This document shows positions 3,001 to 40,410 of a stretch of DNA of 64,000 nt, piece by piece. Source of the stretch: Calliopsis andreniformis (taxonomy: Eukaryota; Arthropoda; Insecta; Hymenoptera; Andrenidae). Position numbers and translations under genes: made by a program. The stretch lies in the NCBI RefSeq assembly GCF_051401765.1, contig NW_027480422.1, positions 19,052,001 to 19,116,000 of the forward strand, written 5' to 3'. The first letter of the stretch is position 1. Each line of letters begins with the position of its first letter. Under the pieces are notes generated by a model, which had not been told where the DNA came from, did not search any database, and was given only the letters and a program-made list of their open reading frames with translations.

Positions 3001-3488
3001 GAGCGAAGCCCAGGTTGCCCGGAAAGTAGAAATGGCCCTTACTTTCACTCTGGATGCAATTATTCGTGTTATACGGTGGAAAAACTGTTGCATTCTTATT
3101 GTATTTTATGCTTCGGTCGTTGACTTCTAAGGCCCTAGCTATTTGATCTGGTGGATCAACGCCCTAGAGTGAAGGATAGGTTGCCCGGAATGTAGAAATG
3201 GCCATTACTATCACACTGGATGCAATTATTCGCTTTATAAGATGGAAAAACTGTTGTATTTACATTGCATTTTATGCTTCGGGCGTTGACTTCTAAGGCC
3301 CTAACTATTCGATCTGCTGGAGCGACGCCCTAGGGCGGAGCCTAGGTTGCCCGGAACGTAGAAATGACCATTACCTTCACACTGATTGCAATTATTCATT
3401 TTATGCGATGGACAAACAGTTGTATTATTATTGTATTTTATGCTCCGGGCGTAGACTTCTAAGGCCCTAGCTATTAGATCTGGTGGAT
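1..3488 (+). repeat. Diverged monomers without a clear HOR
   Basis: About 21 monomers that keep the 166 bp register but differ at many positions. Weak long-period similarity exists. The monomer at 1-140 resembles 1,659-1,800, ten monomers later; both carry GGAGTTAAGCCAAGG and CTGTTCTATTTATTTTG. The variant CAAGAGTGAAGCCTAGGTGG occurs at about 1,338 and 1,835, three monomers apart. Neither extends into a block that repeats cleanly. No gene is seen. Confidence 0.75.
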
Positions 3489-7799: not shown

Positions 7800-9003
7800 C
7801 AACGCCCTAGAGTGAAGCCTAGGTTGCCCGGAACGTAGAAATGACCATTACCTTCACACTGGTTGCAATTATTCGCGATATACGATGGAAAAACTGTTGT
7901 ATCTTTATTGTATTTTATGCTTCGGGCGTTGACTTCTATGGACCTAACTATTCGATCTGGTGGAGCAACGCCCTAGAGTGAAGCCTAGGTTGCCCGGAAC
8001 CTAGAAATGGCCATTACTTTCACACTGTTTGCAATTATTCGTTTGATACGGTGGAAATGCAGTTGTATTTATATTGTATATTATGCTTCGTGCGTTGACT
8101 TCTAAGGCCCTAACTATTCGATCTGGTGGTGCAACGCCCTAGAGTGAAGCCTAGGTTGCCCGGAAAGTGGAAATGACCATAACTTTCACACTGGTTGCAA
8201 TTATTCGTTTTATACGATGGAAAAGCTGTTGCATTTATATTGTGTATTATGCTTCTGGCGTTGACTTCTTAGGCCCTAACTATTCGATCTGGTGGAGCAG
8301 CGCTCTAGAGTAATGCCTAGGTTGCCCGGAACGTAGAAATGGTCATTACTATCACACTGTTTGCAATTATTCATTTGATACGATGGAAATGCTGTTGTAT
8401 TTATATTGTATATTATGCTTCGTGCGTTGACTTCTAAGGCCCTAACTATTCGATCTGGTGGTGCAACGCCCTAGAGTGAAGCCTAGGTTGCCCGGAAAGT
8501 GGAAATGACCATAACTTTCACACTGGTTGCAATTATTCGTTTTATACGATGGAAAAGCTGTTGTATTTATATTGTGTATTATGCTCCTGGCGTTGACTTC
8601 TTAGGCCCTAACTATTCGATCTGGTGGAGCAACGCCCTAGAGTGAAGCCTAGGTTGCCCGGAACCTAGAAATGGAAATTACTTTCACACTGGATGCAATT
8701 ATTCCTGTTATACGATGGAACAGCTGTTGCATTTTCATTGTATTTTATGCTTCGGGCGTTGACTTCTAGGGCCCTAACTATTCCATCTGGTGGAGCAACG
8801 CCCTAGTGTAAAGCCTAGGTTGCCCGGAACTTAGAAGTAACCATAACTTTCACACCGGTTTCAATTATTCGTTTTATACGATGGAAAAACTGTTGTATTT
8901 ATATCGTATTTTATGATTCTGGCGTCGACTTCTGAGGCCCTAACAATTCGATCTGGTGGAACAACGCCCTAGATTGAATCCTAGATTGCCCGGAACGTAG
9001 AAA
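7800..9003 (+). repeat. Partial 9-monomer-offset copy of the preceding block
   Basis: Bases about 8,190-9,003 repeat 6,697-7,510 at an offset of 1,493 bp (9 monomers). They share GCAGCGCTCTAGAGTAATGC, TTTGATACGATGGAAATGC and GATTGAATCCTAGATTGCCC. Bases 7,800-8,190 are related monomers of mixed type. Confidence 0.75.
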
Positions 9004-10399
9004 TGACCGTCACTTTCATACTGGTTGCCATTATTCGTGTTATACGATGGAAAGACTGTTGCATTTTTATTGCATTTTATGCCTCGGGCGATGACTTCTA
9101 AGGCCCTAACAATTCGATCTGGTGAAACAACGCCCTAGAGTGAAGCCTGGGTCGCCCAGAACGTAGAAATGACCATCACTTTCACACTGGTTGCAATTAC
9201 TCCTGTTATACGATGGAAAAACTGTTGTATCTTTATTGTATTTTATGCTTCGGGCGTTGACTTCTAAGGCCCTAACTATACGACCTGGTGGAGCAACGCC
9301 CCAGAGTGAAGCCTAGGTTGCCCGGAACGTAAAAATGGCCATTACATCCACACTGTTTGCAATTGTTCATTTTATACGATGGAAAAACTGTTGTATTTAT
9401 ATTGTATTTTATGCTTCTGGCGTTGACTCCTAAGGCCGTAGCTATTCGATGTGGTGGAACAACGCCCTAGATTGAGTCCTAGGTTGCCCGGAACGTAGAA
9501 ATGACAATTACCTTCACACTGATTGCAATTATTCATTTTATACGATGGAAGAACTGTTGTATTTTTATTGTATTTCATGCTCCGGGCGTAGACTTCTAAG
9601 GCCCTAACTATTCGATCTGGTGGAGCAACGCCCTAGAGTGAAGCCTAGGTTGCCCGGAACGTAAAAATGGCCATTACTTCCACACTGTTTGCAATTATTC
9701 ATTTTATACGAGGGAAAAACTGTTGTATTTATATTGTATTTTATGCTTCGGGCGTTGACTTCTAAGGCCCTAACTCTTCAATCTGGTGGAGCAACGCCCT
9801 AGGGCGGAGCCTAGGTTGCCCGGAACGTAGAAATGACCATAAATTTCACACCGGTTGCAATTATTCGCTTTAGACGATGGGAAATCTGTTGTATTTATAT
9901 TGTATTTTATGCTTCGGGCGTCGACTTCTAAGGCCCTAACTCTTCGATCTGGTGGAGCAACGCCCTAGGGCGGAGCCTAGGTTGCCCGGAACGTAGAAAT
10001 GACCATTACCTTCACACTGATTGCAATTTTTCATTTTATACCATGGAAATACTGTCGCATTTTCATTGTATTTTGTACTTAGGGCGTTGACTTCTGTGGA
10101 CCTAACTAATCGATCTGGTGGAGCAACGCCCTAGAGTGAAGTCTAGGTTGCCCGGAACCTAGAAATGGCCATTACTTTCACACTGGATGCAATTATTCCT
10201 GTTACACGATGGAATAATTGTTGTATTTATATTGTATGTTATGCTTCTGGCGTTGACTTCTTAGGCCCTTACTATTCGATCTCGTGGAACAACGCCCTAG
10301 ATTGAATCCTAGGTTGCCCGGAACGTAGAAATGACTATCACTTTCACATTGGTTGCAATTATTCGCTTTATACGATGGAAAATCTGTTGTATTTATATT
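9004..10399 (+). repeat. Mosaic monomers, left arm
   Basis: About eight monomers in register with no extended duplication seen. Several carry CTAGGGCGGAGCCTAGG (near 9,800 and 9,965), a variant also at about 3,335, 10,630 and 12,610. No gene is seen. Confidence 0.7.
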
Positions 10400-13200
10400 G
10401 TATTTTATGCTTCGGGCGTTGACTTCTAAGGCCCTACCTATTCGATCTGGTGGAGCAACGCCCTAGATCGAAGCATAGGTTGCCCGGAACGTAGAAATGA
10501 CCATTACTTTCACACTGTTTGCAATTATTCATAATATACGATGCAAAATCTGATGTATTTATATTGTATTTTATGCTTCGGGCGTTGACTTCTAAGGCCC
10601 TAACTATTCGATCTGGTGGAGCAACGCCCTAGGGCGGAGCCTAGGTTGCCCGGAACGTAGACATGACCATTACCTTCACACTGATTGCAATTATTCAGTT
10701 TGTGGGGTGGAAGAACTGTTGTATTTTTATTGTGTTTTATGCTCCGGGCGTTGACTTCTGAGGCCCTAACTATTCGATCTGGTGGAACGGCGCCCTAGAG
10801 TGAAGCCTAGGTTGCCCGGAACGTAGAAATGACTATCAGTTTCATACTGGTTGCAGTTATTCGTGTTATACCATGGAAAAACTGTTGCATTCTCACTGTA
10901 TTTTATGCTTCTGGCGTTGACTTCTTGGGCCCTAACTATTCGCTCTGATGTAGCAGCGCCCCAGAGTGTATCCTAGGTTGCCGAAACGTAGAAATGACCA
11001 TTACCTTCACACTGATTGCAATTATTCATTTTATACGATTGAAAAACTGTTGCATTCTTATTGTATTTTATGCTTCGGTCGTTGACTTCTAAGGCCCTAG
11101 CTATTTGATCTGGTGGATCAACGGCCTAGAGTGAAGGATAGGATGCCCGGAATGTAGAAATGGCCATTACTATCACACTGGATGCAATTATTCCTGTTAT
11201 ACGATGGAAAAACTGTTGTATTTTTATTGTATTTTATGCTTCTGGCGTTGAATTCTAAGTCCCTAGCTATACGATCTGGTGGAGCAACGCCCTAGGGTGA
11301 AGCCTAGGTTGCCCGGAGCGTAGAAATGAACATTACTTTCACACTGCTTGCAATTATTCCTGTTATACGATGGAAAAGCTGTTGTATTTTTATTGTATTT
11401 TATGCTTCTGGCGTTGACTTCTAAGTCGCTAGCTATTCGATCTGGTGGAGCAACGCCCTAGAGTGAAGCTTAGGTTGCCCGGAACGTAGAAATGATCATT
11501 ACTTTCACACTGGATGCAATTTTCCTGTTGTACGATGGAAAAACTGTTGCATTTATATTGTATTTTACGCTTCGGGCGTTGACTTCTATGGCCCTAACTA
11601 TTCCATCTGGTCGAACAACGCCCTAGAGTGAAGTCTAACTTGCCCGGAACGTAGAAATAAGCATAACCTTCACACCGGTTGCAATTATTCGTATAAGACA
11701 ATGGAAAAACTGTTGCATTTGTTTTGTATTTTACGCTTCTGGCGTTGACTTCTAAGGCCCTAACAATTCGATCTGGTGGAACGACGCCCTACAGTGAAGC
11801 CTAGGTTGCCCGGAAAGTGGAAATGACCATAACTTTCACACTGGTTGCAATTATTCGTTTTATACGATGGAAAAGCTGTTGTATTTATATTGTGTATTAT
11901 GCTTCTGGCGTTGACTTCTTAGGCCCTAACTATTCGATCTGGTGGAGCAGCGCTCTAGAGTAATGCCTATGTTGCCCGGAACGTAGAAATGTTCATTACT
12001 ATCACACTGTTTGCAATTATTCATTTGATACGATGGAAATGCTGTTGTATTTATATTGTATATTATGCTTCGTGCGTTGACTTCTAAGGCCCTAACTATT
12101 CGATCTGGTGGTGCAACGCCCTAGAGTGAAGCCTAGGTTGCCCGGAAAGTGGAAATGACCATAACTTTCACACTGGTTGCAATTATTCGTTTTATACGAT
12201 GGAAAAGCTGTTGTATTTATATTGTGTATTATGCTCCTGACGTTGACTTCTTAGGCCCTAACTATTCGATCTGGTGGAGCAACGACCTAGAGTGAAGCCT
12301 AGGTTGCCCGGAACCTAGAAATGGCCATTACTTTCACACTGGATGCAATTATTCATTTTATACGAGGGAAAAACTGTTGTATTTATATTGTATTTTATGC
12401 TTCGGGCGTTGACTTCTAAGGCCCTACCTATTCGATCTGGTGGAGCAACGCCCTAGAGCGAAGCATAGGTTGCCCGGAACGTAGAAATGACCATTACTTT
12501 CACACTGTTTGCAATTATTCATAATATACGATGCAAAATCTGATGTATTTATATTGTATTTTATGCTTCGGGCGTTGACTTCTAAGGCCCTAACTATTCG
12601 ATCTGGTGGAGCAACGCCCTAGGGCGGAGCCTAGGTTGCCCGGAACGTAGAAATGACCATTACCTTCACACTGATTGCAATTATTCAGTTTATGGGGTGG
12701 AAGAACTGTTGTATTTTTATTGTGTTTTATGCTCCGGGCGTTGACTTCTAAGGCCCTAACTATTCGATCTGGTGGAGCAACGCCCTAGAGCGAAGCCTAG
12801 GTTGCCCGGAACGTAGAAATGGCCATAACTTTCACACTGGTTGCAATTATTCGTTTTATACGATGGAAAAACTGTTGTATTTGTTTTGTATTTTATGCCT
12901 CTGTCGTTGACGTCTTAGGCCCTAACAATTCGATCTGGTGGAACGACGCCCTAGAGTGAAGCCTAGGTTGCCCGGAACGTAGAAATGACTATCACTTTCA
13001 TACTGGTTGCAGTTATTCGTGTTATACCATGGAAAAACTGTTGCATTCTCACTGTATTTTATGCTTCTGGCGTTGACTTCTTGGGCCCTAACTATTCGCT
13101 CTGATGTAGCAGCGCCCCAGAGTGTATCCTAGGTTGCCGAAACGTAGAAATGACCATTACCTTCACACTGATTGCAATTATTCATTTTATACGATTGAAA
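10400..13200 (+). repeat. Mosaic of duplicated blocks, left arm
   Basis: Bases 10,400-11,043 reappear at 12,390-13,200, first at offset 1,990 bp and then at 2,156 bp, so the second copy has gained one monomer near 12,800. Both contain TTCATAATATACGATGC, GGGGTGGAAGAACTG and GTTATACCATGG. Between them, 11,044-11,810 copies 5,570-6,336 (offset 5,474 bp, 33 monomers), and 11,811 to about 12,345 copies 8,161-8,695 (offset 3,650 bp, 22 monomers). Confidence 0.75.
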
Positions 13201-13623
13201 AACAGTTGTATTTTTATTGTATTTTATGCTCCGGGCGTAGACTTCTAGGGCCCTAGCTATTCGATCTGGTGGAGCAACGCCCTAGAATGAAGCTTAGGTT
13301 GCCCGGAACGTAGAAATGATCATTACTTTCACACTGGATGCAATTTTCCTGTTATACGATGGAAAAACTGTTGTATTTATATTGTATTTTATGCTTCCGG
13401 CGTTGACTTCTATGGGCCTAACTATTCCATCTGGTCGAACAACGCCCTAGAGTGAAGTCTAGGTTGCCCGGAACGTTGAAATAAGCATAACCTTCACACC
13501 GGTTGCAATTATTCGTATAAGACGATGGAAAAACTGTTGCATTTGTTTTGTATTTTACGCTTCTGGCGTTGACTTCTAAGGCCCTAACAATTCGATCTGG
13601 TGGAACGACGCCCAACAGTGAAG

Positions 13624-15282
13624 CCTAGGTTGCCCGGAACGTAGGAATGACCATCATCTTCACACTGGTTGCAACTATTCCTGTTATACGATGGAAAAAA
13701 TGTTGTATTTATATTGTATTTTACGCTTCTGGAGTTGACTTCTAAGTCCGTAGCTAATCGATCTGGTGGAGCAATGCCCTAGAGTGAAGCCTAGCTTGCA
13801 CGGAACGTAGAAGTGACCATAACTTTCACACCGGTTGCAATTATTCGTTTTATACGATGGAAAAACTGTTGTATTTATTTTGCTTTTTATGCTCCGGGCG
13901 TAGACTTCTAAGGCCCTAGATATTCGATCTGGTGGAGCAACGCCCTAGAGTCAAGCCTAGGTTGCCCGGAATGTAGAAATGACAATAACTTTCACACTGG
14001 TTGCAATTATTCGTTTTATACGATGGAAAAGCTGTTGTATTTATATAGTATTTTATGCTTCTGGCGTTGAATTCTATGCCCCTAGCTATTCGATCTGGTG
14101 GAGCAACGCCCTAGACTGAAGCCTAGGCTGCCCGGAGCGTAGAAATGACTATCACTTTCACTCTGGATGCAATTATTCGTTTTATACGATGGAATAACTG
14201 TTGTATTTATATTGTGTGCTATGCTTCTGGCGTTGACTTCTTAGGCCCTAGCTATACGATCTGGTTGAGCAACGCCCTATAGTGAAGCCTAGGTAGCCCG
14301 GAACGTAGAAATAACTATCACTTTCACATTGGTTGCAATTATTCGTTTTGTACGATGTAACATCTGTTGTATTTATATTCTGTTTTATGCTTCTGGCGTT
14401 GACTTCTTAAACCCTAACTATTCGATCTGGTGGAGCAACGTCCTAGAGCGAAGCCTAGGTTGCCCAGAACGTAGAAGTGACTACCACTTTCATACTGGTT
14501 GCCATTATTCGTGTTATACGATGGAAGGGCTGTAGCTTTTTATTGTATTTTATGCTTCTGGCGTTGACTTCTAAGGCCCTAGCTATTCGATCTGGTGGAG
14601 CAACGTCCTAGAGTGAAGCCTGGGTTGCCCGGAACGTAGAAATGACTATCACTCTCACACGGGTTGCAACTATTCGTGTTATACGATGGAAAAACCGTTG
14701 CATTTTCATTGTATTTTATGCTTCGGGCGTTGACTTCTAAGGCCCTAACTATTCTATATGGTGGAGCAACGCCCGAGACTGGAGCCTAAGTTGCCCGGAA
14801 CGTAGAAATGACCATAACTTTCACACGGGTTGCAATTATTCGTTTTATACGATGGAAGAACTGTTGCATTTGTTTTGTATTTTACGATTCTGGCGTTGAC
14901 TTCCAAGGCCCTAACAATTCGATGTGGTGGAACAACGACCTAGAGTGAAGCCTAGGTTGCCCGGAACGTAGAAATGAGCACCACTTTCACACTGGTTGCA
15001 ATTACTCCTCTTATACGATGGAAAAACTGTTGTATCTTTATTGTATTTTATGCTTCGGGCGTTGACTTCTAAATTCCCAGCTACTCGATCTGGTGGTGCA
15101 ACGCCCTAGAGTGAACCCTAGGTTGCCCGGAACGTAGAAATGTCCATTACTTTCACGCTGGATGCAATTATTCGTTTTATACGATGGAAAAACTGTTGCA
15201 TTTGTATTGTGTTTTATGCTTCTGGCGTTGACTTCTTAGGATCTAACAATTCGATCTGGTGGAGCAACGCCGTAGAGTGAAG
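13624..15282 (+). repeat. 10-monomer HOR, first copy (1,659 bp)
   Basis: First unit of a tandem HOR series. It starts with CCTAGGTTGCCCGGAACGTAGG followed by a CATCATCTTCACACTGG variant. It differs from the next two units mainly by one extra monomer at 14,977-15,142, recognisable by GAGCACCACTTTCACACTGG and AAATTCCCAGCTACTCG. Diagnostic internal variants include GATGTAACATCTGTTG and GGAAGGGCTGTAGC. Confidence 0.92.
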
Positions 15283-16775
15283 CCTAGGTTGCCCGGAACG
15301 TAGGAATGACCATCATCTTCACACTGGTTGCAATTATTCCTGTTATACGATGGAAAAAATGTTGTATTTATATTGTATTTTATGCTTCTGGAGTTGACTT
15401 CTAAGTCCGTAGCTAACCGATCTGGTGGAGCAACGCCCTAGAGTGAAGCCTAGCTTGCACGGAACGTAGAAGTGACCATAACTTTCACACCGGTTGCAAT
15501 TATTCGTTTTATACAATGGAAAAACTGTTGTATTTATTTTGCTTTTTATGCTCCGGGCGTAGACTTCTAAGGCCCAAGATATTCGATCTGGAGGAGCAAC
15601 GCCCTAGAGTCAAGCCTAGGTTGCCCAGAATGTAGAAATGACAATAACTTTCACACTGGTTGCAATTATTCGTTTTATACGATGGAAAAGCTGTTGTATT
15701 TATATAGTATTTTATGCTTCTGGCGTTGAATTCTATGCCCCTAGCTATTCGATCTGGTGGAGCAACGCCCTAGACTGAAGCCTAGGCTGCCCGGAGCGTA
15801 GAAATGACTATCACTTTCACTCTGGATGCAATTATTCGTTTTATACGATGGAATAACTGTTGTATTTATATTGTGTGCTATGCTTCTGGCGTTGACTTCT
15901 TAGGCCCTAGCTATACGATCTGGTGGAGCAACGCCCTATAGTGAAGCCTAGGTAGCCCGGAACGTAGAAATAACTATCACTTTCACATTGGTTGCAATCA
16001 CTCGTTTTGTACGATGTAACATCTGTTGTATTTATATTCTGTTTTATGCTTCTGGCGTTGACTTCTTAAACCCTAACTATTCGATCTGGTGGAGCAACGT
16101 CCTAGAGCGAAGCCTAGGTTGCCCAGAACGTAGAAGTGACTACCACTTTCATACTGGTTGCCATTATTCGTGTTATACGATGGAAGGGCTGTAGCTTTTT
16201 ATTGTATTTTATGCTTCTGGCGTTGACTTCTAAGGCCCTAGCTATTCGATCTGGTGGAGCAACGTCCTAGAGTGAAGCCTGGGTTGCCCGGAACGTAGAA
16301 ATGACTATCACTTTCACACGGATTGCAACTATTCGTGTTATACGATGGAAAAACCGTTGCATTTTCATTGTATTTTATGCTTCGGGCGTTGACTTCTAAG
16401 GCCCTAACTATTCTATATGGTGGAGCAACGCCCGAGACTGGAGCCTAAGTTGCCCGGAACGTAGAAATGACCATAACTTTCACACGGGTTGCAATTATTC
16501 GTTTTATACGATGGAAGAACTGTTGCATTTGTTTTGTATTTTATGATTCTGGCGTTGACTTCCAAGGCCCTAACAATTCGATGTGGTGGAACAACGACCT
16601 AGAGTGAAGCCTAGGTTGCCCGGAACGTAGAAATGTCCATTACTTTCACGCTGGATGCAATTATTCGTTTTATACGATGGAAAAACTGTTGCATTTATAT
16701 TGTGTTTTATGCTTCTGGCGTTGACTTCTTAGGATCTAACAATTGGATCTGGTGGAGCAACGCCCTAGAGTGAAG
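15283..16775 (+). repeat. 9-monomer HOR, second copy (1,493 bp)
   Basis: Near-identical to the first copy except that the single monomer equivalent to 14,977-15,142 is absent, leaving nine monomers. Differences I could see elsewhere are scattered single bases, for example CAATCACTCG for CAATTATTCG near 15,997. Confidence 0.93.
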
Positions 16776-18268
16776 CCTAGGTTGCCCGGAACGTAGGAAT
16801 GACCATCATCTTCACACTGGTTGCAATTATTCCTGTTATACGATGGAAAAAATGTTGTATTTATATTGTATTTTATGCTTCTGGAGTTGACTTCTAAGTC
16901 CGTAGCTAATCGATCTGGTGGAGCAACGCCCTAGAGTGAAGCCTAGCTTGCACGGAACGTAGAAGTGACCATAACTTTCACACCGGTTGCAATTATTCGT
17001 TTTATACAATGGAAAAACTGTTGTATTTATTTTGCTTTTTATGCTCCGGGCGTAGACTTCTAAGGCCCAAGATATTCGATCTGGAGGAGCAACGCCCTAG
17101 AGTCAAGCCTAGGTTGCCCAGAATGTAGAAATGACAATAACTTTCACACTGGTTGCAATTATTCGTTTTATACGATGGAAAAGCTGTTGTATTTATATAG
17201 TATTTTATGCTTCTGGCGTTGAATTCTATGCCCCTAGCTATTCGATCTGGTGGAGCAACGCCCTAGACTGAAGCCTAGGCTGCCCGGAGCGTAGAAATGA
17301 CTATCACTTTCACTCTGGATGCAATTATTCGTTTTATACGATGGAATAACTGTTGTATTTATATTGTGTGCTATGCTTCTGGCGTTGACTTCTTAGGCCC
17401 TAGCTATACGATCTGGTGGAGCAACGCCCTATAGTGAAGCCTAGGTAGCCCGGAACGTAGAAATAACTATCACTTTCACATTGGTTGCAATCACTCGTTT
17501 TGTACGATGTAACATCTGTTGTATTTATATTCTGTTTTATGCTTCTGGCGTTGACTTCTTAAACCCTAACTATTCGATCTGGTGGAGCAACGTCCTAGAG
17601 CGAAGCCTAGGTTGCCCAGAACGTAGAAGTGACTACCACTTTCATACTGGTTGCCATTATTCGTGTTATACGATGGAAGGGCTGTAGCTTTTTATTGTAT
17701 TTTATGCTTCTGGCGTTGACTTCTAAGGCCCTAGCTATTCGATCTGGTGGAGCAACGTCCTAGAGTGAAGCCTGGGTTGCCCGGAACGTAGAAATGACTA
17801 TCACTTTCACACGGATTGCAACTATTCGTGTTATACGATGGAAAAACCGTTGCATTTTCATTGTATTTTATGCTTCGGGCGTTGACTTCTAAGGCCCTAA
17901 CTATTCTATATGGTGGAGCAACGCCCGAGACTGGAGCCTAAGTTGCCCGGAACGTAGAAATGACCATAACTTTCACACGGGTTGCAATTATTCGTTTTAT
18001 ACGATGGAAGAACTGTTGCATTTGTTTTGTATTTTATGATTCTGGCGTTGACTTCCAAGGCCCTAACAATTCGATGTGGTGGAACAACGACCTAGAGTGA
18101 AGCCTAGGTTGCCCGGAACGTAGAAATGTCCATTACTTTCACGCTGGATGCAATTATTCGTTTTATACGATGGAAAAACTGTTGCATTTATATTGTGTTT
18201 TATGCTTCTGGCGTTGACTTCTTAGGATCTAACAATTCGATCTGGTGGAGCAACGCACTAGAGTGAAG
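16776..18268 (+). repeat. 9-monomer HOR, third copy (1,493 bp)
   Basis: Exact 1,493 bp offset from the second copy with very few substitutions. One falls in AATTGGATCTGG (about 16,741), which is AATTCGATCTGG at about 18,234. It also lacks the extra monomer of the first copy. Confidence 0.93.
18103..18268 (+). repeat. Representative 166 bp monomer
   Basis: An exact 166 bp monomer counted from CCTAGG to the next CCTAGG, used here to define positions. In the hand-built consensus, 1-6 is CCTAGG; 12-13 and 17-18 are CpGs in CCGGAACGT; 31-50 is the TTACTTTCACACTGGTTGCA block; 51-100 is the AT-rich core, ending in two near-identical 10-11 bp units TTGTATTTTTA and TTGTATTTTA; 101-120 is the TGCTTCTGGCGTTGACTTCT block; 123-128 is GGCCCT; 135-153 covers TTCGATCTGGTGGAGCAAC; and 154-166 leads back into CCTAGG. 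The consensus was made by eye, so minor positions may differ from a computed one. Confidence 0.9.
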
Positions 18269-18540
18269 CCTAGGTTGCCCGGAACGTAGGAATGACCATC
18301 ATCTTCACACTGGTTGCAATTATTCCTGTTATACGATGGAAAAAATGTTGTATTTATATTGTATTTTATGCTTCTGGAGTTGACTTCTAAGTCCGTAGCT
18401 AATCGATCTGGTGGAGCAACGCCCTAGAGTGAAGCCTAGCTTGTACGGAACGTAGAAGTGACCATAACTTTCACACCGGTTGCAATTATTCGTTTTATAC
18501 AATGGAAAAACTGTTGTATTTATTTTGCTTTTTATGCTCC
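18269..18540 (+). repeat. Truncated fourth copy of the 9-monomer HOR
   Basis: About 270 bp continue the series at offset 1,493 bp. The match stops at GCTCCGGGCGT, after which earlier copies read AGACTTCTAAGGCCCAAG and this one reads TGACTTCTAAGGCCCTAG. Confidence 0.85.
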
Positions 18541-18980
18541 GGGCGTTGACTTCTAAGGCCCTAGCTATTCGATTTGGTGGAGCAACGCCCTAGAGCAAAA
18601 CCTAGGTTGCCCGGAACGTAGAAATGGCCATAACTTTCAAACTGGTTGCAATTATACCTTTTATACGATGGAAAAACTGGTGCATTTATTTTGTAGTTTA
18701 TGTTTCTGGCGTTAATTTCTAATGCTCATACTCATCCATTTGGCGAAGCAACGCCCTAGAGTGAAGCCTAGGCTGCCCGGAACGTAGAAATGTCTGTTAC
18801 TTTCACTCTGGTTGCAATTATTCCTTTTATAGGAAGTAAAAACTGTTGTATTTTTATTGTATTTTAAGCTTCTGGCGTTGACATCTAAGGCCCTAGAAAC
18901 TCGATCTGGTGGACTAACGGCCTAGAGTGAAGTCTAGGTTGCCCGGAACGTAGAAATGACCATAACTTTCACACTGGTTG
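18541..18980 (+). repeat. Strongly diverged monomers left of the orientation switch
   Basis: Roughly three monomers that keep the register but carry many private changes, such as GTTAATTTCTAATGCTCATA, CATCCATTTGGCGAAGC, TTATAGGAAGTAAAAACTG and GGACTAACGGCC. No close copy of them was found elsewhere in the window. No gene is seen. Confidence 0.8.
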
Positions 18981-19068
18981 CAATTATTCCAGTCATACGA
19001 TGGAAAATACAATATGTAAAATACAAGAAAAATACAACAGTTATTCCATCGTATAAAAGCAATAATTG
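18981..19068. repeat. Orientation-switch palindrome between the two arms
   Basis: Imperfect inverted repeat: left arm 18,981-19,005, right arm 19,044-19,068. The inner 11 bp, ATACGATGGAA at 18,995-19,005, is perfectly complementary to TTCCATCGTAT at 19,044-19,054. The outer parts, CAATTATTCC and GCAATAATTG, also pair with mismatches. The 38 bp between them holds two direct copies of AAAATACAA, at about 19,004-19,012 and 19,018-19,026. Both arms fall at monomer positions 63-73 measured from CCTAGG, so the switch joins the same phase in opposite orientations. The right-hand sequence becomes recognisable inverted monomer at about 19,015. Confidence 0.93.
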
Positions 19069-19276
19069 CAATCATTGTGAAAGTTATTGTCTTTTCTCCG
19101 TTCCGGGCAACCTATACATCACTCTAGGGCGTCGGTCCACCAGATCGAATAGCTAGGGCCTAAGAAGTCAACGCCAGAAGCATAAAGTACAATAAAAATA
19201 CAACAGCTTATCCATCGTATATAGTGAATAATTTCAACCAGTGTGAAAGTAAAGGTCATTTCTACGATCCGGGCAA
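19069..19276 (-). repeat. Diverged monomers right of the orientation switch
   Basis: The first inverted monomers also carry private changes, for example CTTTTCTCCGTTCCGGG and CCTATACATCACTCTAGGGC in place of the usual CCTAGGCTTCACTCTAGGGC. Confidence 0.75.
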
Positions 19277-22260
19277 CCTAGGTTTCGCTCTAGGGAGTTG
19301 CTCCACCACATCCAATAGCTAGGGGCTCAGAAGTCAACGCCAGAAGCATAAAATACAATATAAATACAACAGTTTTTCCATTGTATGAAATGAATAATTG
19401 CAAACAGCGTGAAAGCAATTGTCATTTCCACCTTCCGGGAAACTAGGCTTTACTCTAGGGCGTTGCCCAACTACATCGAATAGCTACGGCCTTAGAAGTC
19501 AACGCCTGAAGCATAAAATACAATATAAATACGACAGCTTTTCAATCGTATAACAGGAATAATTGCAGCCAGTGTGAACGTAATGACCATTTCTACGTTC
19601 CGGTAATCCTAGACTTAACTCTGAGGCATTGCTCCACCAGATCGATGAGTTAGGTCCTTAGAAGTCAAAGCCAGAAGCATAAAATACAAAATAAATACAA
19701 CAGCCTTTCCATCGTATAAAACGAACAATTGCAACCTGTGTGAAAGTTATGGTCATTTCTACGTTCCGGGCAACCTAGGCCTGACTCTAGGGCGTTGCTC
19801 CACCAGATCGAATAGGTAGGGCCATAGAGGTCAACGCCCGAAGCATAAAATACGATAAAGATACAACAGTTTTTCCATCGCACAACACGAATAAATGCAA
19901 CTAGTGTGAAAGTGATGGTCATTTCTACGTTCCGTGCAACATAGGCTTCACTCTAGGGCGTTGTTCCACCAGATCGAATAGTTAGGGCCTAAGAAGTCAA
20001 CGCCAGAAGCATCAAGTACAAAATAAATAGAACAGTTTTTCCATAGTATAAAACGAATAATTGCAACCAGTGTGAAAGTAATGGCCATTTCAACGCTCCG
20101 GGTATCCTAGACTTAACTCGGAGGCATTGCTCCACCAGATCGAATACATAGGTCCTTAGAGGTCGACGACGGAAGCGTAAAGTACAATAAAAATCCAACA
20201 GTTTGTACATCGTATAACAGGAATAATTGCAATCAGTGTGAAAGTAAAGGTCACTTCTACGTTCCGGGCAACCTAGGTTTCGCTGTAGGGCGTTGCTCCA
20301 CCACATCCAATAGCTAGGGGCTTAGAAGTCAACGCCAGAAGCATAAAATACAATATAAATACAACAGTTTTTCCATTGTATAAAATGAATAATTGCAAAC
20401 AGTGTGAAAGTAATTGTCAGTTGCACCTTTCGGGAAACTAGGCTTCCCTCTAGGGCGTTGCTCCACTACATCGAATAGCTACGGCCTTAGAAGTCAACGC
20501 CTGAAGCATAAAATACAGTATAAATACGACAGCTTTTCAATCGTATAACAGGAGTAATTGCAGCCAGTGTGAACCTAACGGCCATTTCTACGTTCCGGTA
20601 ATCCTAGACTTAACTCTGAGGCATTGCTCCACCAGATCGATCAGTTAGGTCCTTAGAAGTCAAAGCCAGAAGCATAAAATACAAAATAAATACAACAGCC
20701 TTTCCATCGTATAAAACGGACAATTGCAACCTGTGTGAAAGTTATGGTCATTTCTACGTTCCGGGCAACCTAGGCTTCTCTCTAGGGCGTTGCTCTACAA
20801 CGTCGAATAGCTCGGGCCTTAGAAGTCAACGCCCGAAGCATAAAACACAAATTAAATAGAACAGTTTTTCCATAGTATAAAACGAATAATTGCAACCAGT
20901 GTGAAAGTAATGGCCATTTCAACGCTCCGGGTATCCTAGACTTAACTCGGAGGCATTGCTCCACCAGATCGAATACATAGGTCCTTAGAGGTCGACGACG
21001 GAAGCGTAAAGTACAATAAAAATCCAACAGTTTGTACATCGTATAACAGGAATAATTGCAATCAGTGTGAAAGTAAAGGTCATTTCTACGTTCTGGGCAA
21101 CCTAGGTTTCGCTCTAGGGTGTTGCTCCACCACATCCAATAGCTAGGGGCTTAGAAGTCAACGCCAGAAGCATAAAATACAATATAAATACAACAGTTTT
21201 TCCATTGTATAAAATGAATAATTGCAAACAGTGTGAAAGTAATTGTCAGTTGCACCTTTCGGGAAACTAGGCTTCCCTCTAGGGCGTTGCTCCACCAGAT
21301 CGAATAGGTAGGGCCATAGAGGTCAACGCCCGAAGCATAAAATACAATAAAGATACAACAGTTTTTCCATCGCACAACAGGAATAAATGCAACCAGTGTG
21401 AAAGTGATGGTCATTTCTACGTTCCGTGCAACCTAGGCTTCACGCTAGGGCGTTGTTCCTCCAGATCGAATAGTTAGGGCCTAAGAAGTCAACGCCAGAA
21501 GCATCAAGTACAAAATAAATACAACAGTTTTTCCATCGTATAAAACGTATAACAGCAACCAGTGTGAAAGCAATGGTCATTTCTACGTTCCGGGTAACCT
21601 AGGCTTCACCCTAGGGCATTGCTCCTCCAGATCGAATAGCTAGGGCATTAGAAGTCAACGCCAGAAGCATAAAATAAAATAAAATTACAACAGTTTTTCC
21701 ATCGTGCAACAGGAATAACTGGAACCAGTGTGAAGGTGATGGTCATTTCTACGTTCCGGGCAACCTAGGCTTAACTCTAGGGCGCTTCTCAACCAGATCG
21801 TATAGATAGGGACTTTGAATACAACGCCAGAAGCATAAAATACAAAAAAATGCGACAGTTTTTCCATCGTACGACAGGTGTAACTGCAACCAGTGTGAGA
21901 GTGGTGGTCGTTTCTACGATCCGGGAAACCTAGCCTTAACTCTAGGGTGTTGCTAAACCAGATCGAATAGGTACGGCCTTAGAAGTCAACGCTAGAAGCA
22001 TAAAATACAATATAAATACAACCGTTTTTCCTTCGTACAACAGGAATGATTGCAACCAATGTGAAAGTAATGGTTATTTCTGCGTTCCGGGCAACCTAGG
22101 CTTCACTCTAGGGCGTTGCTCCACCACATCGAATAGTTAGGGCCTAAAAAGTCAACGCCAGAAGCATAATGTATAATAAGATTACAACATTTTTTCCATC
22201 GCACAACAGGAATAAATGCAACCAGTCTGAAAGTGATGGTCATTTCTACGTTCCGGGCAA
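19277..22260 (-). repeat. Recurring five-monomer module and 829 bp duplication
   Basis: A module starting CCTAGGTTTCGCTCTAGG and containing CATCCAATAGCTAGGGGCT, CATTGTATAAAATGAATAAT and TACGACAGCTTTTCAATCG begins at 19,277 and 20,272 (offset 995 bp, six monomers). It begins in part at 21,101 (offset 829 bp, five monomers). About 430 bp at 20,035-20,462 repeat at 20,864-21,291, including GTCGACGACGGAAGCG. Bases 21,292-22,260 are mixed monomers. The same module opens both 14-mers to the right. Confidence 0.8.
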
Positions 22261-24581
22261 CCTAGGTTTCGCTCTAGGGCGTTGCTCCACCACATCCAAT
22301 AGCTAGGGGCTCAGAAGTCAACGCCAGAAGCATAAAATACAATATAAATACAACAGTTTTTCCATTGTATAAAATGAATAATTGCAAACAGTGTGAAAGT
22401 AATTGTCATTTCCACCTTCCGGGAAACTAGGCTTCACTCTAGGGCGTTGCTCCACTACATCGAATAGCTACGGCCTTAGAAGTCAACGCCTGAAGCATAA
22501 AATACAATATAAATACGACAGCTTTTCAATCGTATAACAGGAATAGTTGCAGTCAGTGTGAACGTAATGGCCATTTCTACGTTCCGGTAATCCTAGACTT
22601 AACTCTGAGGCATTGCTCCACCAGATCGATGAGTCAGGGCCTTAGAAGTCAAAGCCAGAAGCATAAAATACAAAACAAATACAACAGCCTTTCCATTGTA
22701 TAAAACGAACAATTGCAACCAGTGTGAAAGTTATGGTCATTTCTACGTTCCGGGCAACCTAGGCTTGACTCTAGGGCGTTGCTCCACCAGATCCAATAGT
22801 TAGGGCCTAAGAAGTCAACGCCAGAAGCACCAAATACAAAATAAATACAACAGTTTTTCCATCGTATAAAACGAATATTTGCAACCAGTGTGAAAGTAAT
22901 GGTCATTTCTACGTTCCGGGCAATATAGGCTTCACACTAGGGCGTTGCTCCACAAGATCGAGTAGTTAGAGCCTTAGTAGTCAGCGGCCGAAGCGTAAAA
23001 TACAATATAAATACAACAGTTTTTCCATCGTATAACAGGAATAATTGCAACCAGAGTGAAGGTAATGGCCATTTCTACGTTCCGGGCAACCTAGGTTTCA
23101 CTCTAGGGCGTTGGTCCACCAGATCGAATAGTTAGGGCCTAACAAGTCCTCGCCAGAAGCATAAAATTCAATAAAAATGCAACAGTCTTTCCATCGTATA
23201 ACAGGAATAATTGCAACCAGAGTGAAGGTAATGGCCATTTCTACGTTCCGGACAACCTAGGTTTCACTCTAGGGCGTTGGTCCACCAGATCGAATAGTTA
23301 GGGCCTAACAAGTCAACGCCAGAAGCATAAAATTCAATAAAAATGCAACAGTCTTTCCATCGTATAACAGGAATAATTGCAACCATTTTGAAGGTAATTG
23401 CGATTTCTACGTTCCGTGCAACCTAGGCTTCACTCTACGGCGTTGGTCCACCAGATCGAATAGTTAGGGCCTAAGAAGTCAACGCCAGAAGCAGAAATAC
23501 AGTAAAAATGCAACAGCCTTTCCATCGTATAGCATGAATAATTGCAACCAGTGTGAACGTAATGATCATTTCGACGTTCCGGGCAACCTAGGCTTCATTC
23601 TAGGTCGTTGTACCACCAGATCGAACAGTTAGGGCCTCAGAAGGCAACGCCCGAAACATAAAATACAGTGAAAATAAAACAGTTTTTCCATCGTATAGAA
23701 CGAATAATTGCAACCAGTGTGAAGGTAATGGTCATTTCTACGTTCCGGGCAACCTCGGCTTCATCCTTGGGCGTTGCTCTACCAGATCCAATAGTTGGGA
23801 GCTTAGAAGTCTACGCCCGAAGCATAAAATACAATATAAATACAGCAGTTTTTCCATCGTATAAAACGAATAATAGCAACCAGTGTGAAGGTGATGGTTA
23901 TTTCCACGTTCCGGGAAAGATAGGCTTCACTCTAGGGTGTGGGTACACCAGATCCAATAGTTAGGGCCTAAGAAGTCAACGCCAGAAGCACCAAATACAA
24001 AATAAATGCAACAGTTTTTCCATCGTATAAAACGAATAATTGCAACCAGTATAAAAGTTATGATCATTTCTACGTTCCGGCCAACCTAGGCTTCATTCTA
24101 GGGCGATGTTCCACCAGATCGAACAGTTAGGGCCTCAGAAGACAACGCCAGAAGCATAAAATACAATATAAATACAACAGCTTTTCCATTGTATAAAACG
24201 AGTAATTGCAACCAGTGTGAAAGTTATGGTCACTTCTACATTCCGTGCAACCTGGGCTTCACTCTAGGTCGTCGCACCACCAGCTCGAATAGCTAGGACC
24301 TAAGAAGTCAACGCCCGAAACATAAAATACAATAAAAATACAACAGTTTTTCCATCGTATAACGGGAATAATTGCATCCAGTGTGAAAGTGATGGTCATT
24401 TCCTCATTCCGGGAAACCTAGGCTTCACTTCAGGGCGTTGGTACACCAGATCCAATAGTTAGGGCCTAAGAAGTCAACGCCAGCATCACCAGATACAAAA
24501 TAAATACAACAGCTTTTCCATCTATAATACGAATAATTGCAACCAGTGTGAAAGTTATGGTTATTTCTACGTTCCGGGCAA
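22261..24581 (-). repeat. 14-monomer HOR, copy 1 (2,321 bp)
   Basis: Starts at CCTAGGTTTCGCTCTAGGGC and repeats in full immediately to the right at offset 2,321 bp. It contains the five-monomer module seen at 19.3 and 20.3 kb, then monomers with AACCAGAGTGAAGGTAATGG, AGTGAAAATAAAACAG and CATCTATAATACG. Confidence 0.94.
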
Positions 24582-26902
24582 CCTAGGTTTCGCTCTAGGG
24601 CGTTGCTCCACCACATCCAATAGCTAGGGGCTCAGAAGTCAACGCCAGAAGCATAAAATACAATATAAATACAACAGTTTTTCCATTGTATAAAATGAAT
24701 AATTGCAAACAGTGTGAAAGTAATTGTCATTTCCACCTTCCGGGAAACTAGGCTTCACTCTAAGGCGTTGCTCCACTACATCGAATAGCTACGGCCTTAG
24801 AAGTCAACGCCTGAAGCATAAAATACAATATAAATACGACAGCTTTTCAATCGTATAACAGGAATAGTTGCAGTCAGTGTGAACGTAATGGCCATTTCTA
24901 CGTTCCGGTAATCGTAGACTTAACTCTGAGGCATTGCTCCACCAGATCGATGAGTCAGGGCCTTAGAAGTCAAAGCCAGAAGCATAAAATACAAAACAAA
25001 TACAACAGCCTTTCCATTGTATAAAACGAACAATTGCAACCAGTGTGAAAGTTATGGTCATTTCTACGTTCCGGGCAACCTAGGCTTGACTCTAGGGCGT
25101 TGCTCCACCAGATCCAATAGTTAGGGCCTAAGAAGTCAACGCCAGAAGCACCAAATACAAAATAAATACAACAGTTTTTCCATCGTATAAAACGAATATT
25201 TGCAACCAGTGTGAAAGTAATGGTCATTTCTACGTTCCGGGCAATATAGGCTTCACACTAGGCCGTTGCTCCACAAGATCGAGTAGTTAGAGCCTTAGTA
25301 GTCAGCGGCCGAAGCGTAAAATACAATATAAATACAACAGTTTTTCCATCGTATAACAGGAATAATTGCAACCAGAGTGAAGGTAATGGCCATTTCTACG
25401 TTCCGGGCAACCTAGGTTTCACTCTAGGGCGTTGGTCCACCAGATCGAATAGTTAGGGCCTAACAAGTCCTCGCCAGAAGCATAAAATTCAATAAAAATG
25501 CAACAGTCTTTCCATCGTATAACAGGAATAATTGCAACCAGAGTGAAGGTAATGGCCATCTCTACGTTCCGGACAACCTAGGTTTCACTCTAGGGCGTTG
25601 GTCCACCAGATCGAATAGTTAGGGCCTAACAAGTCAACGCCAGAAGCATAAAATTCAATAAAAATGCAACAGTCTTTCCATCGTATAACAGGAATAATTG
25701 CAACCATTTTGAAGGTAATTGCGATTTCTACGTTCCGTGCAACCTAGGCTTCACTCTACGGCGTTGGTCCACCAGATCGAATAGTTAGGGCCTAAGAAGT
25801 CAACGCCAGAAGCAGAAATACAGTAAAAATGCAACAGCCTTTCCATCGTATAGCATGAATAATTGCAACCAGTGTGAACGTAATGATCATTTCGACGTTC
25901 CGGGCAACCTAGGCTTCATTCTAGGTCGTTGTACCACCAGATCGAACAGTTAGGGCCTCAGAAGGCAACGCCCGAAACATAAAATACAGTGAAAATAAAA
26001 CAGTTTTTCCATCGTATAGAACGAATAATTGCAACCAGTGTGAAGGTAATGGTCATTTCTACGTTCCGGGCAACCTCGGCTTCATCCTTGGGCGTTGCTC
26101 TACCAGATCCAATAGTTGGGAGCTTAGAAGTCTACGCCCGAAGCATAAAATACAATATAAATACAGCAGTTTTTCCATCGTATAAAACGAATAATAGCAA
26201 CCAGTGTGAAGGTGATGGTTATTTCCACGTTCCGGGAAAGATAGGCTTCACTCTAGGGTGTGGGTACACCAGATCCAATAGTTAGGGCCTAAGAAGTCAA
26301 CGCCAGAAGCACCAAATACAAAATAAATGCAACAGTTTTTCCATCGTATAAAACGAATAATTGCAACCAGTATAAAAGTTATGATCATTTCTACGTTCCG
26401 GCCAACCTTGGCTTCATTCTAGGGCGATGTTCCACCAGATCGAACAGTTAGGGCCTCAGAAGACAACGCCAGAAGCATAAAATACAATATAAATACAACA
26501 GCTTTTCCATTGTATAAAACGAGTAATTGCAACCAGTGTGAAAGTTATGGTCACTTCTACATTCCGTGCAACCTGGGCTTCACTCTAGGTCGTCGCACCA
26601 CCAGCTCGAATAGCTAGGACCTAAGAAGTCAACGCCCGAAACATAAAATACAATAAAAATACAACAGTTTTTTCATCGTATAACGGGAATAATTGCATCC
26701 AGTGTGAAAGTGATGGTCATTTCCTCATTCCGGGAAACCTAGGCTTCACTTCAGGGCGTTGGTACACCAGATCCAATAGTTAGGGCCTAAGAAGTCAACG
26801 CCAGCATCACCAGATACAAAATAAATACAACAGCTTTTCCATCTATAATACGAATAATTGCAACCAGTGTGAAAGTTATGGTTATTTCTACGTTCCGGGC
26901 AA
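24582..26902 (-). repeat. 14-monomer HOR, copy 2 (2,321 bp)
   Basis: Tandem copy of 22,261-24,581. I saw only a handful of single-base differences, such as AATCCTAGAC (about 22,592) versus AATCGTAGAC (about 24,913) and CCAACCTAGG (about 24,086) versus CCAACCTTGG. The match stops at 26,903, where CCGTGGCTTC replaces CCTAGGTTTC. Confidence 0.94.
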
Positions 26903-28894
26903 CCGTGGCTTCACCCTGGGGAGTTGCTCCACCAGATCCAATAGTTAGGGCCTTAGAAGTCAACGCCAGAAGCATAAAACACAATATAAATGCAACAGTT
27001 TTTCCATCGTATAAAACCAATAATTGCAACCAGTATAAAGGTTATGGTCATTTCTACGTTCCGGCCGACCTCGGCTTCACCCTAGGGCGTTGCTCCACCA
27101 GATCCAATAGTTAGGGCCTTAGAAGTCAACGCCCGAAGCATAAAATACAATACAAATACATCAGTTTTTCCATCGTATAACAGGAATAATTGCAACCAGA
27201 GTGAAGCTGGTGGTCATTTCTACGTTCCGGGATACCTAGGCCTCACTCTAGGGTGTTGCTCCACCAGATCGAATAGCTAGGGCCTTAGAAGTCAGCGCCC
27301 GAAACGTAAAATACAGTAAAAATAAAACTGTTTTTCCAATGTATAACGGGAATAATTGCAACCAGTGTGAAGGTGATAGAAATTTCTACGTTCCGGGAAA
27401 CAAAGGCTTCTCTCTTGGATGTTGCCCCACCAGATCGAATAGCTAAGACCTTAGAAGTCAAAGCCAGAAGAAGAAAGTACAATAAAAATGCAACAGTTTT
27501 TCCATCGTATAGCATGAATAACTGCAACCTGTGTGAAAGTAATTGTCATTTCTACGTTCCGGGCAACCTAGGCTTCATTCTAGGGCGTTGTCCCACCAGA
27601 TCGAACAGTTAGGGCCTCAGAAGACAACGCCAGAAGCATAAAATACAATATAAATACAACAGATTTTCCATCGTATAAAACGAATAATAGCAACCAGTGT
27701 GAAAGTTATGGTCATTTCTACGTTCCGGGCAACCTAGACTTCACTCTAGGGCGTTGCTCCACCAGATCGAATAGTTAGGGCCTAAGAAGTCAACGCCCGA
27801 AACATAAAATACAAAATTAATACAACAGTTTTTCCATTGTATAAATCGAGTAATTGCAACCAGTGTGAAAGTTATGGTCAATTCTACATTCCGTGCAACC
27901 TAGGCTTCACTCTAGGTCGTTGCACCACCAGATCGAATAGCTAAGACCTTAGAAGTCAAAGCCAGAAGAAGAAAGTACAATAAAAATGCAACAGTTTTTC
28001 CATCGTATAGCATGAATAACTGGAACCAGTGTGAAAGTAATGGTCATTTCTACGTTCCGGGCAACCTTGGCTTCACCCTGGGTAGTTGCTCCACCAGATC
28101 CAATAGTTAGGGCCTTAGAAGTCAACGCCCGAAGCATAAAATACAATACAAATACATCAGTTTTTCCATCGTAAAACAGGAATAATTGCAACCAGAGTGA
28201 AGCTGGTGGTCGTTTCTACGTTCCGTGATACCTAGGCCTCACTCTAGGGCGTTGCTCCACCAGATCGAATAGCTAGGGCCTTAGAAGTCAGCGCCCGAAA
28301 CGTAAAATACAGAAAAAATAAAACAGTTTTTCCATCGTATAACGGGAATAATTGCAACCAGTGTGAAGGTGATAGACATTTCTACGTTCCGGGAAACAAA
28401 GGCTTCTCTCTTGGATGTTGCCCCACCAGATCGAATAGCTAAGACCTTAGAAGTCAAAGCCAGAAGAAGAAAGTACAATAAAAATGCAACAGTTTTTCCA
28501 TCGTATAGCATGAATAACTGCAACCTGTGTGAAAGTAATTGTCATTTCTACGTTCCGGACAACCTAGGCTTCATTCTAGGGCGTTGCTCCAACAGATCGA
28601 ATAGCTAGTGCCTCAGAAGTCAACGCCAGAAGCACCGAATACAAAATAAATACAACAGTTTTTCCATCGTATAGCATGAATAACTGCAACCAGTGTGAAA
28701 GTAATGGTCATTTCTACGTTCCCGGCAACCTTGGCTTCACCCTGGGTAGTTGCTCCACCAGATCCAATTGTTAGGGCCTTAGAAGTCGAGGCCCGAAGCA
28801 TAACATACAATATAAATACAACAGTTTTTCCATCGTATAAAACGAATAATAGCAACCAGTGTGAAAGTTATGGTCATTTCTACGTTCCGGGCAA
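26903..28894 (-). repeat. 6-monomer-offset duplication, right arm
   Basis: Bases about 27,230-27,590 repeat at 28,226-28,586 (offset 996 bp, six monomers). Both carry CCGAAACGTAAAATACAG, CTCTTGGATGTTGCCCC and AAGCCAGAAGAAGAAAGTAC. Bases 27,260-27,960 also repeat at 31,575-32,275 (offset 4,315 bp, 26 monomers). Confidence 0.8.
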
Positions 28895-29950
28895 CCTAGG
28901 CTTCTCTCTAGGGCGTTGCTCCACCAGATCGAATAGTCAGGGCCTTACAAGACAACGCCGGAAGCATAAAATACAAAATTAATACAACAGTTTTCCATTG
29001 TATAAAACGAGCAATTGCAAGCAGTGTGAAGGTTATGGTCACTTCTACATTCCGTGCAGCCTAGGCTTCAGTCTAGGGCGTTGATCCACGAGATCGAATA
29101 GCTAGGGCCTTATAAGTCAACGCCCGAAACATAAAATACAATCAAAATACAACAGTTTTTCCATCGTATAACGGGAATAATTGCAACCAGTATGAAAGTT
29201 ATGGCCATTTCTACGTTCTGGCGAACCTCGGCTTCACCCTAGGGCGTTGCTCCACCAGATACAATAGTTAGGGCCTAAGAAGTCAACGCAAGGAGCACCA
29301 AATACAAAATAAATACAACAGTTTTTCCATCGTATAAAACGAATAATTGCAACCAGTATGAAAGCTATGGTCATTTCTACGTTCCGGGCAACCTAGGCTT
29401 CACTCTGGGGCGTTGCTCAACCACATCGAGTAGCTAGGGCCCTAAAAGACAACGCCATAACTATTAAATACAATATAAATACAACAGTCTTTCCATCCTA
29501 TAAAACGAATAATTGCAACCAGTCTGATAGTTATAGTCATTTCTACGTTCCGGGCAACCTAGGCTTTACTCTAGAGCATTGCTCCACCAGATCGAATAGG
29601 TAGAGCCTAAGAAGACAACGCCAGAAGCATAAAATACAATATAAATACAACAGCTTTTCCACCGTAAATAATGTATACTTGCAAACAGTGTGAAATTAAA
29701 GGTCATTTCTACGTTCCCGGCAACCTAGGCTTCACTCTAGGGAGTTGATCCACCAGGTCGAATAGTTAGGGCCTAAGAAGTCAACGCCAGAAACATAAAA
29801 CACAATATAAATACAACAGCTTTTCCATCGTATATAATGTATATTTGCAAACAGTGTGAAAGTAAAGGTCATTTCTACGTTCCGGGCAACCTAGGCTTAA
29901 ATGTAGGGCGTCTCTCCACCAGATCGAATAGTTAGGGCCTAAGAAGTCAG
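28895..29950 (-). repeat. Partial early copy of the 17-monomer HOR
   Basis: Matches 32,546-33,601 at offset 3,651 bp (22 monomers). It starts at CCTAGGCTTCTCTCTAGG and includes CAAGGAGCACCAAATAC and CGCCATAACTATTAAA. The similarity also extends left to about 28,613, matching 32,264. Confidence 0.82.
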
Positions 29951-39513: not shown

Positions 39514-40160
39514 CCTAGGCTTCACACCAGGGCGTTGCTCCACCAGATCGAATAGTTAGGGCCTAAGAAGTCAACGCCAGAAGCATAAAGTACGATATAT
39601 GTACAACAGTTTTTCCATCGTATAAAATGAATAATTGCAACCAGTGTGAAAGTAATGGTCATTTCTATGTTCCGAGCAACCTAGGTTTCGCTCCATGGCG
39701 TTGCTCCACCATATCGAATAATTTGGGCCCTAGAAGTCAGTGCCAGAAGCATAAAATACAATATAAATACAACAGTTTTTCCACGTATAAAATGAATAAT
39801 TGCAAACAGTGAGGAAGTAATGGTCATTTCTACGTTCCGGGCAACCTAGGCTTCACTCTAGGGCGTTGCTCCACCAGATCGAATAGCTAGGGACTTAGAA
39901 GTCAACGACAGAAGCCAAAAATAAAATAAAAATACAACAGTTTTTCCATCGTATAAAACGAATAATTGCAACGAGTATGAATGTTATGGTCATTTCTACG
40001 TTCCGGGCAACCTAGGCTTCACTCTAGGGCGTTTCTCAACCACATCGAACAGCTGCGGCCCTAGAAGACAACGCCATAACTATAAAATACAATACAAATA
40101 CAACAGTCTTTCCATCGTATAAAACAAATAATTGCAACCAGTCTTATAGTTATGGTCATT
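39514..40160 (-). repeat. 8-monomer HOR, truncated copy 2
   Basis: About four monomers repeat 38,188-38,834 nearly exactly. The match then fades: CAGTCTGATAG becomes CAGTCTTATAG, and the following GTGCAACCTAGGTTTCG is not the expected continuation. Bases 40,161-40,410 are ordinary monomers leading to the next block. Confidence 0.85.
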
Positions 40161-40410
40161 TCTACGTTCCGTGCAACCTAGGTTTCGCTCTATGGCGTTG
40201 TTCCGCCACATCGAATAGCTAGGGCCTTAGAAGTCAATGCCAGAAGCATAAAATACAATATAAATACAACAGTTTTTCCATGTATATAATGAATAATTGC
40301 AAACAGTGAGGAAGTAATGGTCATTTCTACGTTCCGGGCAACCTAGGCTTCACTCTAGGGCGTTGCTCCACAACATAGAATAGTTACGGCCTTAGAAGTC
40401 AACGCCAGAA

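What the first reader, a model, noticed from the sequence alone, without database searches (positions are those of the whole stretch)
18981..19068. Head-to-head orientation switch of a satellite array at an in-phase palindrome
The whole array reverses strand once, at about 19,006-19,043. The flanks share an 11 bp perfect inverted repeat (ATACGATGGAA / TTCCATCGTAT) at the same monomer position (63-73), with longer imperfect pairing outside. A join in identical phase suggests a template switch or break repair between oppositely oriented monomers, or fold-back at this short dyad, rather than random ligation. Orientation switches are known in centromeric satellites of other eukaryotes; that it happened by this route here is inference.
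Basis: partly seen in the sequence, partly recalled or inferred. Interest (0 to 1): 0.75.

Follow-up and report, generated by a model that had tools for sequence, protein, structure and literature searches.

The report
Strand switch in satellite DNA array
A long run of one 166-letter repeat flips direction at a single point; the flip looks real and old, but the hairpin at the flip is what any such flip would produce, and similar flips are known in plant, beetle and primate centromeres.

Summary
The window is one 166-bp satellite with a single orientation change: + up to about 19007, - from about 19017. The 11-bp inverted repeat is there (18995-19005 / 19044-19054, 38-bp spacer). The inference from it does not hold. 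Joining a + to a - stretch of one tandem repeat makes such a palindrome anyway: in 16.4% of 3000 random joins the innermost 11-bp repeat has a spacer of 37 bp or less, and 40.3% of 300 random joins fold at least as stably.

The arms show no mirror identity, against a recent fold-back duplication or a chimeric read; the two innermost partial monomers share rare variants, a hint of older fold-back. The joint has a 6-bp overlap (3.9% of 2999 random joins reach it) and a 14-bp partial duplication, so I favour an old microhomology-mediated inversion or join. No monomer pair above 94% identity crosses it (0 of 30780), yet a boundary inside the + arm is equally uncrossed, so a special barrier is not shown. 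Species and genome context were not obtained. Known kind; modest interest.

The parts
1..19007 (+). Satellite arm in + orientation, 166-bp unit, about 114.6 copies
   Evidence: TRF; 115 rows
19017..63998 (-). Same satellite in - orientation, about 271.1 copies
   Evidence: TRF; 272 rows
18995..19005 (+). Left arm of the 11-bp inverted repeat (ATACGATGGAA)
19044..19054 (-). Right arm of the 11-bp inverted repeat (TTCCATCGTAT)
19003..19008 (.). 6-bp overlap of the last + matching 12-mer and the first - matching 12-mer: candidate microhomology at the joint
19004..19031 (-). 14-bp partial tandem duplication (10 of 14 equal) of - monomer sequence just inside the - arm; words spanning it occur once in the window
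18578..19305 (.). Run of 5 monomer rows (112-116) around the joint with no close copy in the window (best matches 0.849 to 0.904)

Best explanation
A real, fairly old rearrangement joint inside one satellite array. A break in a + monomer (after column about 97) was joined to a - monomer (at column about 124) at a few bases of shared A-rich sequence, with a 14-bp slipped copy made then or later. The cause would be microhomology-mediated end joining or replication template switching, either as one breakpoint of an inversion of part of the array or as a join of two oppositely oriented tracts. Later, local block duplications expanded each arm separately and left a few unduplicated, drifting monomers at the joint. 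The palindrome is a by-product of the flip. Shown: the switch, the joint anatomy, the absence of mirror identity, the absence of close cross-arm pairs. Inferred: the repair pathway, the inversion, the age.
For: Single switch. 6-bp overlap at the joint against a median of 1 in random joins, 3.9% of 2999 at 6 or more. 14-bp partial duplication, with joint-spanning words found once in the window. No mirror identity between arms: the mirror offset ranks 37 to 112 of 121 at six depths. Within-arm pairs above 95% identity: 106 of 6441 (+) and 495 of 36315 (-); across: 0 of 30780, maximum 0.940. Rows 112-116 have no close copy. Rows 112 and 115 are among the most diverged from the consensus (2.3 and 3.9 percentile); rows 113, 114 and 116 are not. 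Precedent: a review's account of the maize chromosome 10 centromere, with a hemicentric inversion splitting the CentC array and microhomology-mediated events (PMC8997354, passages).
Against: The overlap measure was chosen after seeing the joint and its 3.9% is weak; A-rich sequence inflates overlaps. The second inversion breakpoint is not in the window. Hints of old fold-back: rare-variant sharing in mirror order at depth 60 has z 2.34, rank 4 of 121; for the innermost partial row 114, none of the other 385 rows shares rare variants as strongly as its mirror partner 115, and for 115 only 2 of 385 do as well as or better than 114.
Confidence: 0.52

Rival explanations
1. Fold-back inverted duplication: a broken end folded on a short dyad and copied its own array back, so that the - arm began as a mirror copy of the + arm; turnover later erased the likeness.
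For: Short inverted repeats at a spacer fit the fold-back pattern described for human inverted duplications (PMC3907307, abstract). The innermost partial monomers share rare variants: for row 114 none of 385 other rows scores as high as 115; for 115 two of 385 do. Weak rare-variant sharing in mirror order at depth 60 (z 2.34, rank 4 of 121).
Against: No mirror excess in identity at any of six depths. Identity next to the joint is at or below background: 114/115 0.838, 113/116 0.837, 112/117 0.776. The next five mirror pairs share no unusual amount of rare variants. A dyad is expected at any switch.
Confidence: 0.23
2. Assembly or read artefact: a misjoin or chimeric fold-back read.
For: Satellite arrays are prone to misassembly (general knowledge); no reads were available here.
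Against: A fold-back read chimera should give near-identical mirror arms, which are absent. Words across the joint occur once in the window, so no repeat overlap inside the window explains a misjoin; the rest of the genome was not searched. No N in the window.
Confidence: 0.13
3. The inverted halves are a functional macro-dyad, kept because the flip site helps organise centromeric chromatin, as proposed for Tribolium beetles.
For: Long inverted subarrays of one satellite with a diverged monomer at the flip resemble T. madens (PMC13081366, passages).
Against: Only one switch is seen and its sequence is not repeated in the window, so no conserved flip element can be shown. The fold energy is ordinary for a +/- join. 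Both arms run off the window, so their symmetry cannot be judged.
Confidence: 0.06

Closest known systems
Strand-orientation switches in Arabidopsis thaliana centromeric satellite arrays (PMC9757041, passages)
   Same: Satellite tracts of both orientations in one centromere; CEN5 of Ey15-2 has fewer switches than that of Col-0
   Different: The passages seen do not describe joints at base level; satellite sequences were not compared
Maize CentC array split by a hemicentric inversion, with microhomology-mediated events (reviewed in PMC8997354, passages)
   Same: Satellite array reorganised by inversion; microhomology proposed as the route
   Different: Placed in a nearly complete centromere assembly; here only one joint is seen and the second breakpoint is unknown
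Alpha-satellite inversions in primate centromeres (PMC11062924, passages)
   Same: Orientation change inside a centromeric satellite array, including a 3.2-Mb orangutan inversion
Tribolium madens macro-dyad satellite arrays (PMC13081366, passages)
   Same: Multi-kilobase inverted subarrays of one satellite with diverged subunits at the flip
   Different: There a few flip elements recur thousands of times; here the flip sequence occurs once in the window

Membership tests
Satellite array with an orientation switch or inversion (as in plant and primate centromeres) | One tandem repeat family on both sides, in opposite orientations, without other DNA between | tested here: met
Satellite array with an orientation switch or inversion (as in plant and primate centromeres) | Switch present in raw long reads | not testable with these tools
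   no reads available
Satellite array with an orientation switch or inversion (as in plant and primate centromeres) | Array is centromeric (CENP-A/CENH3 chromatin) | not testable with these tools
   no chromatin data; the minimal CENP-B box (motif recalled) has 0 exact matches on either strand of the window, best consensus match 7 of 9 positions
Fold-back inverted duplication | Short inverted repeats bounding a spacer at the turning point | tested here: inconclusive
   present, but 16.4% of 3000 random +/- joins of this satellite have a spacer of 37 bp or less
Fold-back inverted duplication | Arms are mirror copies of each other | tested here: not met
   identity at the mirror offset ranks 37 to 112 of 121; rare-variant sharing of the innermost pair and at depths 40 and 60 is the only hint
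Tribolium-type macro-dyad | Recurrent, conserved inversion-site sequence | tested here: inconclusive
   joint-spanning words occur once in 64 kb; the rest of the genome was not searchable
Prunus 166-bp centromeric satellite | Sequence match to the published Prunus FISH probe | tested here: not met
   local score 14 against mean 15.1 for 300 shuffled probes (probe from PMC9028240 section 2.5). The probe covers only part of a monomer

The most novel reading that the evidence does not exclude
The orientation switch is a lasting barrier to homogenisation: block duplication by unequal exchange or break-induced replication cannot use partners in the opposite orientation, so each side evolves on its own and a fossil strip of unduplicated monomers marks the joint.
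Probability: 0.2. Interest if true: 0.5.

Novelty: new member of a known kind. Interest (0 to 1): 0.27.

Why it matters
If the joint is real it is a base-level example of how a satellite array changes direction. It also offers a test of whether opposite orientation stops the local duplication that keeps such arrays uniform. It further shows that a palindrome at such a joint should not be read as its cause without a random-join control.

Tried and rejected
In-phase palindrome as evidence of mechanism: rejected by random joins. In a second form of that control the longest inverted repeat within 100 bp was both 11 bp or more and at a spacer of 37 bp or less in 5.5% of 400 joins; the observed joint's own longest repeat there is 16 bp at a spacer of 148, so it is not of that class. 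Mirror-copy arms: not found on identity.

Special barrier at the switch: without a lag limit, 7 of 347 boundaries have no cross pair above 95%; six are those before rows 112 to 117 around the joint, but the seventh, before row 82 (13601), lies inside the + arm with no change of orientation. With lags up to 85 monomers, 13 of 347 boundaries have none, six of them inside the - arm away from the joint (before rows 244 and 256 to 260). Older differentiation: representative monomers of the two arms differ more than in any of 1000 label shuffles, but as a contiguous split of the 134 representatives the joint is only 20th of 104, and mean cross-boundary similarity without recent copies puts it 65th of 327 from the lowest, so the arm difference can be put down to distance.

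Species: an exact 20-mer had 0 hits in genome contigs and viral contigs. A 15-mer in viral contigs gave 18 loci with one match each, judged chance and not read. Satellite words in the paper library gave 2 and 4 papers whose titles and abstract openings do not concern satellites (listings only). Prunus was tested and not matched. A 166-bp switchgrass variant is mentioned in PMC4053949 (passages) but was not compared. The genome search on the own assembly did not complete.

CENP-B box: no exact match; 7 of 9 in the consensus, which I estimate by hand to be near chance over 332 positions.

Recounted without it: 0 and 2 of 385. Fold-back was raised from 0.20 to 0.23 and the best explanation lowered from 0.55 to 0.52 for that reason.

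Full report
What is there. The 64-kb window holds a single 166-bp satellite from end to end. TRF reports 1-19007 (114.6 copies, 85% matches) and 19017-63998 (271.1 copies, 84%), with consensus units that are near-exact reverse complements of each other. I aligned every base to a cyclic consensus on both strands. The result is 387 monomer rows, 115 in + and 272 in - orientation, with one orientation change, placed at 19016|19017. AT skew changes sign there too. There is no N.

The joint. The last + sequence runs through ATACGATGGAA (18995-19005). Its mirror TTCCATCGTAT is at 19044-19054, leaving a 38-bp spacer. Twelve-base words found in the + arm reach 19008 and those found in the - arm begin at 19003, so 6 bp are shared. 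Inside the - arm, 19004-19017 and 19018-19031 are a partial 14-bp duplication, 10 of 14 equal. Words across this stretch occur once in the window. By hand placement + column about 97 meets - column about 124; the automatic alignment put the two sides 18 columns apart.

Is the palindrome more than chance? No. When two opposite runs of one tandem repeat are joined, equal phases face each other at some distance below half a unit. In 3000 random joins of + and - stretches of this window, the innermost perfect 11-bp inverted repeat had a spacer of 37 bp or less in 16.4%, with a median of 78; the observed spacer is 38. A 150-nt fold over the joint gives -34.2; 40.3% of 300 random joins reach that, and 0 of 300 windows placed in the uninterrupted arms do. 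The hairpin is a consequence of the switch. A gap of 27 columns or less has probability 0.33 under uniform phases.

How it arose. If the - arm had been copied from the + arm by fold-back, monomers at equal distance from the joint should be alike. They are not: at depths of 5, 10, 20, 40, 60 and 100 monomers, identity at the mirror offset ranks 88, 112, 91, 55, 37 and 41 of 121 offsets. The closest full pairs are at 0.837 and 0.776, and the two partial innermost monomers at 0.838, about the median for that row. Results on the other side: shared rare variants in mirror order reach z 1.97 (rank 6 of 121) and 2.34 (rank 4 of 121) at depths 40 and 60, but rank 75, 74, 18 and 18 at depths 5, 10, 20 and 100. 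The innermost pair, rows 114 and 115, shares four non-consensus letters, two of them below 5% frequency; for row 114 none of the other 385 rows scores as high, for row 115 two of 385 do, while the next five mirror pairs are unremarkable. This is a hint that the two joined monomers are related, as fold-back would give, and I put fold-back at 0.23. For end joining or template switching: the overlap of 6 bp is matched by 3.9% of 2999 random joins (one of 3000 gave no word), and the small duplication looks like a slipped copy, though it could be later. These are usual marks of microhomology-mediated repair (general knowledge), and a review reports microhomology-mediated events, among them a hemicentric inversion splitting the CentC array, in the maize chromosome 10 centromere (PMC8997354, passages). 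The evidence for this pathway is modest and the measure was chosen after seeing the joint.

Is it an artefact? A chimeric fold-back read would give near-identical mirror arms; mirror pairs differ by about 16%. A misjoin through a repeat would need an overlap that exists elsewhere; the joint words occur once in the window, but the rest of the genome was not searched. Without reads this stays open.

What happened afterwards. Inside each arm there are recent block duplications: the best partner of a full monomer has a median identity of 99.4%, and pairs above 95% number 106 of 6441 in + and 495 of 36315 in -. Across the joint there are 0 of 30780, the highest being 0.940. At lags up to 60 monomers, 763 of 19380 same-arm pairs exceed 0.93, against 0 of 1711 across. 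Five rows around the joint, 18578-19305, have no close copy. Three partial rows were left out of the pair counts (384 of 387 used). This looks like a barrier, but controls weaken it. The boundary before row 82, within the + arm, is equally uncrossed; at lags up to 85, six boundaries inside the - arm away from the joint are uncrossed too. Runs of four or more unmatched rows make up 29 of 387, so a random point falls in one about 7.5% of the time. The representatives of the two arms do differ beyond 1000 label shuffles, but the joint is only the 20th of 104 contiguous splits and, once recent copies are removed, 65th of 327 boundaries.

Known kinds. Orientation switches or inversions within satellite arrays are documented in A. 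thaliana accessions (PMC9757041, passages), in primate alpha satellite (PMC11062924, passages) and in Tribolium beetles, where flip sites are recurrent elements diverged from the standard subunit (PMC13081366, passages). In Populus alba var. pyramidalis the Palv156 repeats lie predominantly on one strand within each centromere, and inversions within and around centromeres are reported among Salicaceae (PMC12046899, passages). The present case is another member of that kind. Species, chromosome and centromeric status are unknown: the genome search did not answer in ten tries, and the published probe of the Prunus satellite of the same length does not match.

Noticed in passing
window 13601-18577: A block of 9 to 10 monomers is present in about three near-identical copies (lags 9, 10 and 19), ending where the unmatched strip at the joint begins; its left edge (row 82) is crossed by no close pair.
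   Followed up: partly
window, starting at 32575, 44685, 45017 and 49166: Recent block duplications in the - arm, given by the start of the first copy: 17 monomers at lag 17, 12 at lag 76, 12 at lag 12, 14 at lag 62 (about 10.3 kb), like local higher-order repeats.
   Followed up: no
consensus columns 77-93, throughout the window: ATTCGTTTTATACGATG fits 7 of 9 fixed positions of the minimal CENP-B box (motif recalled); no exact match on either strand. By a hand estimate this is near chance.
   Followed up: partly
window 1-1824, 9787-10450, 21461-22289, 29919-30582: Other runs of 4 to 11 monomers without a close copy in the window; the first touches the window's edge.
   Followed up: no
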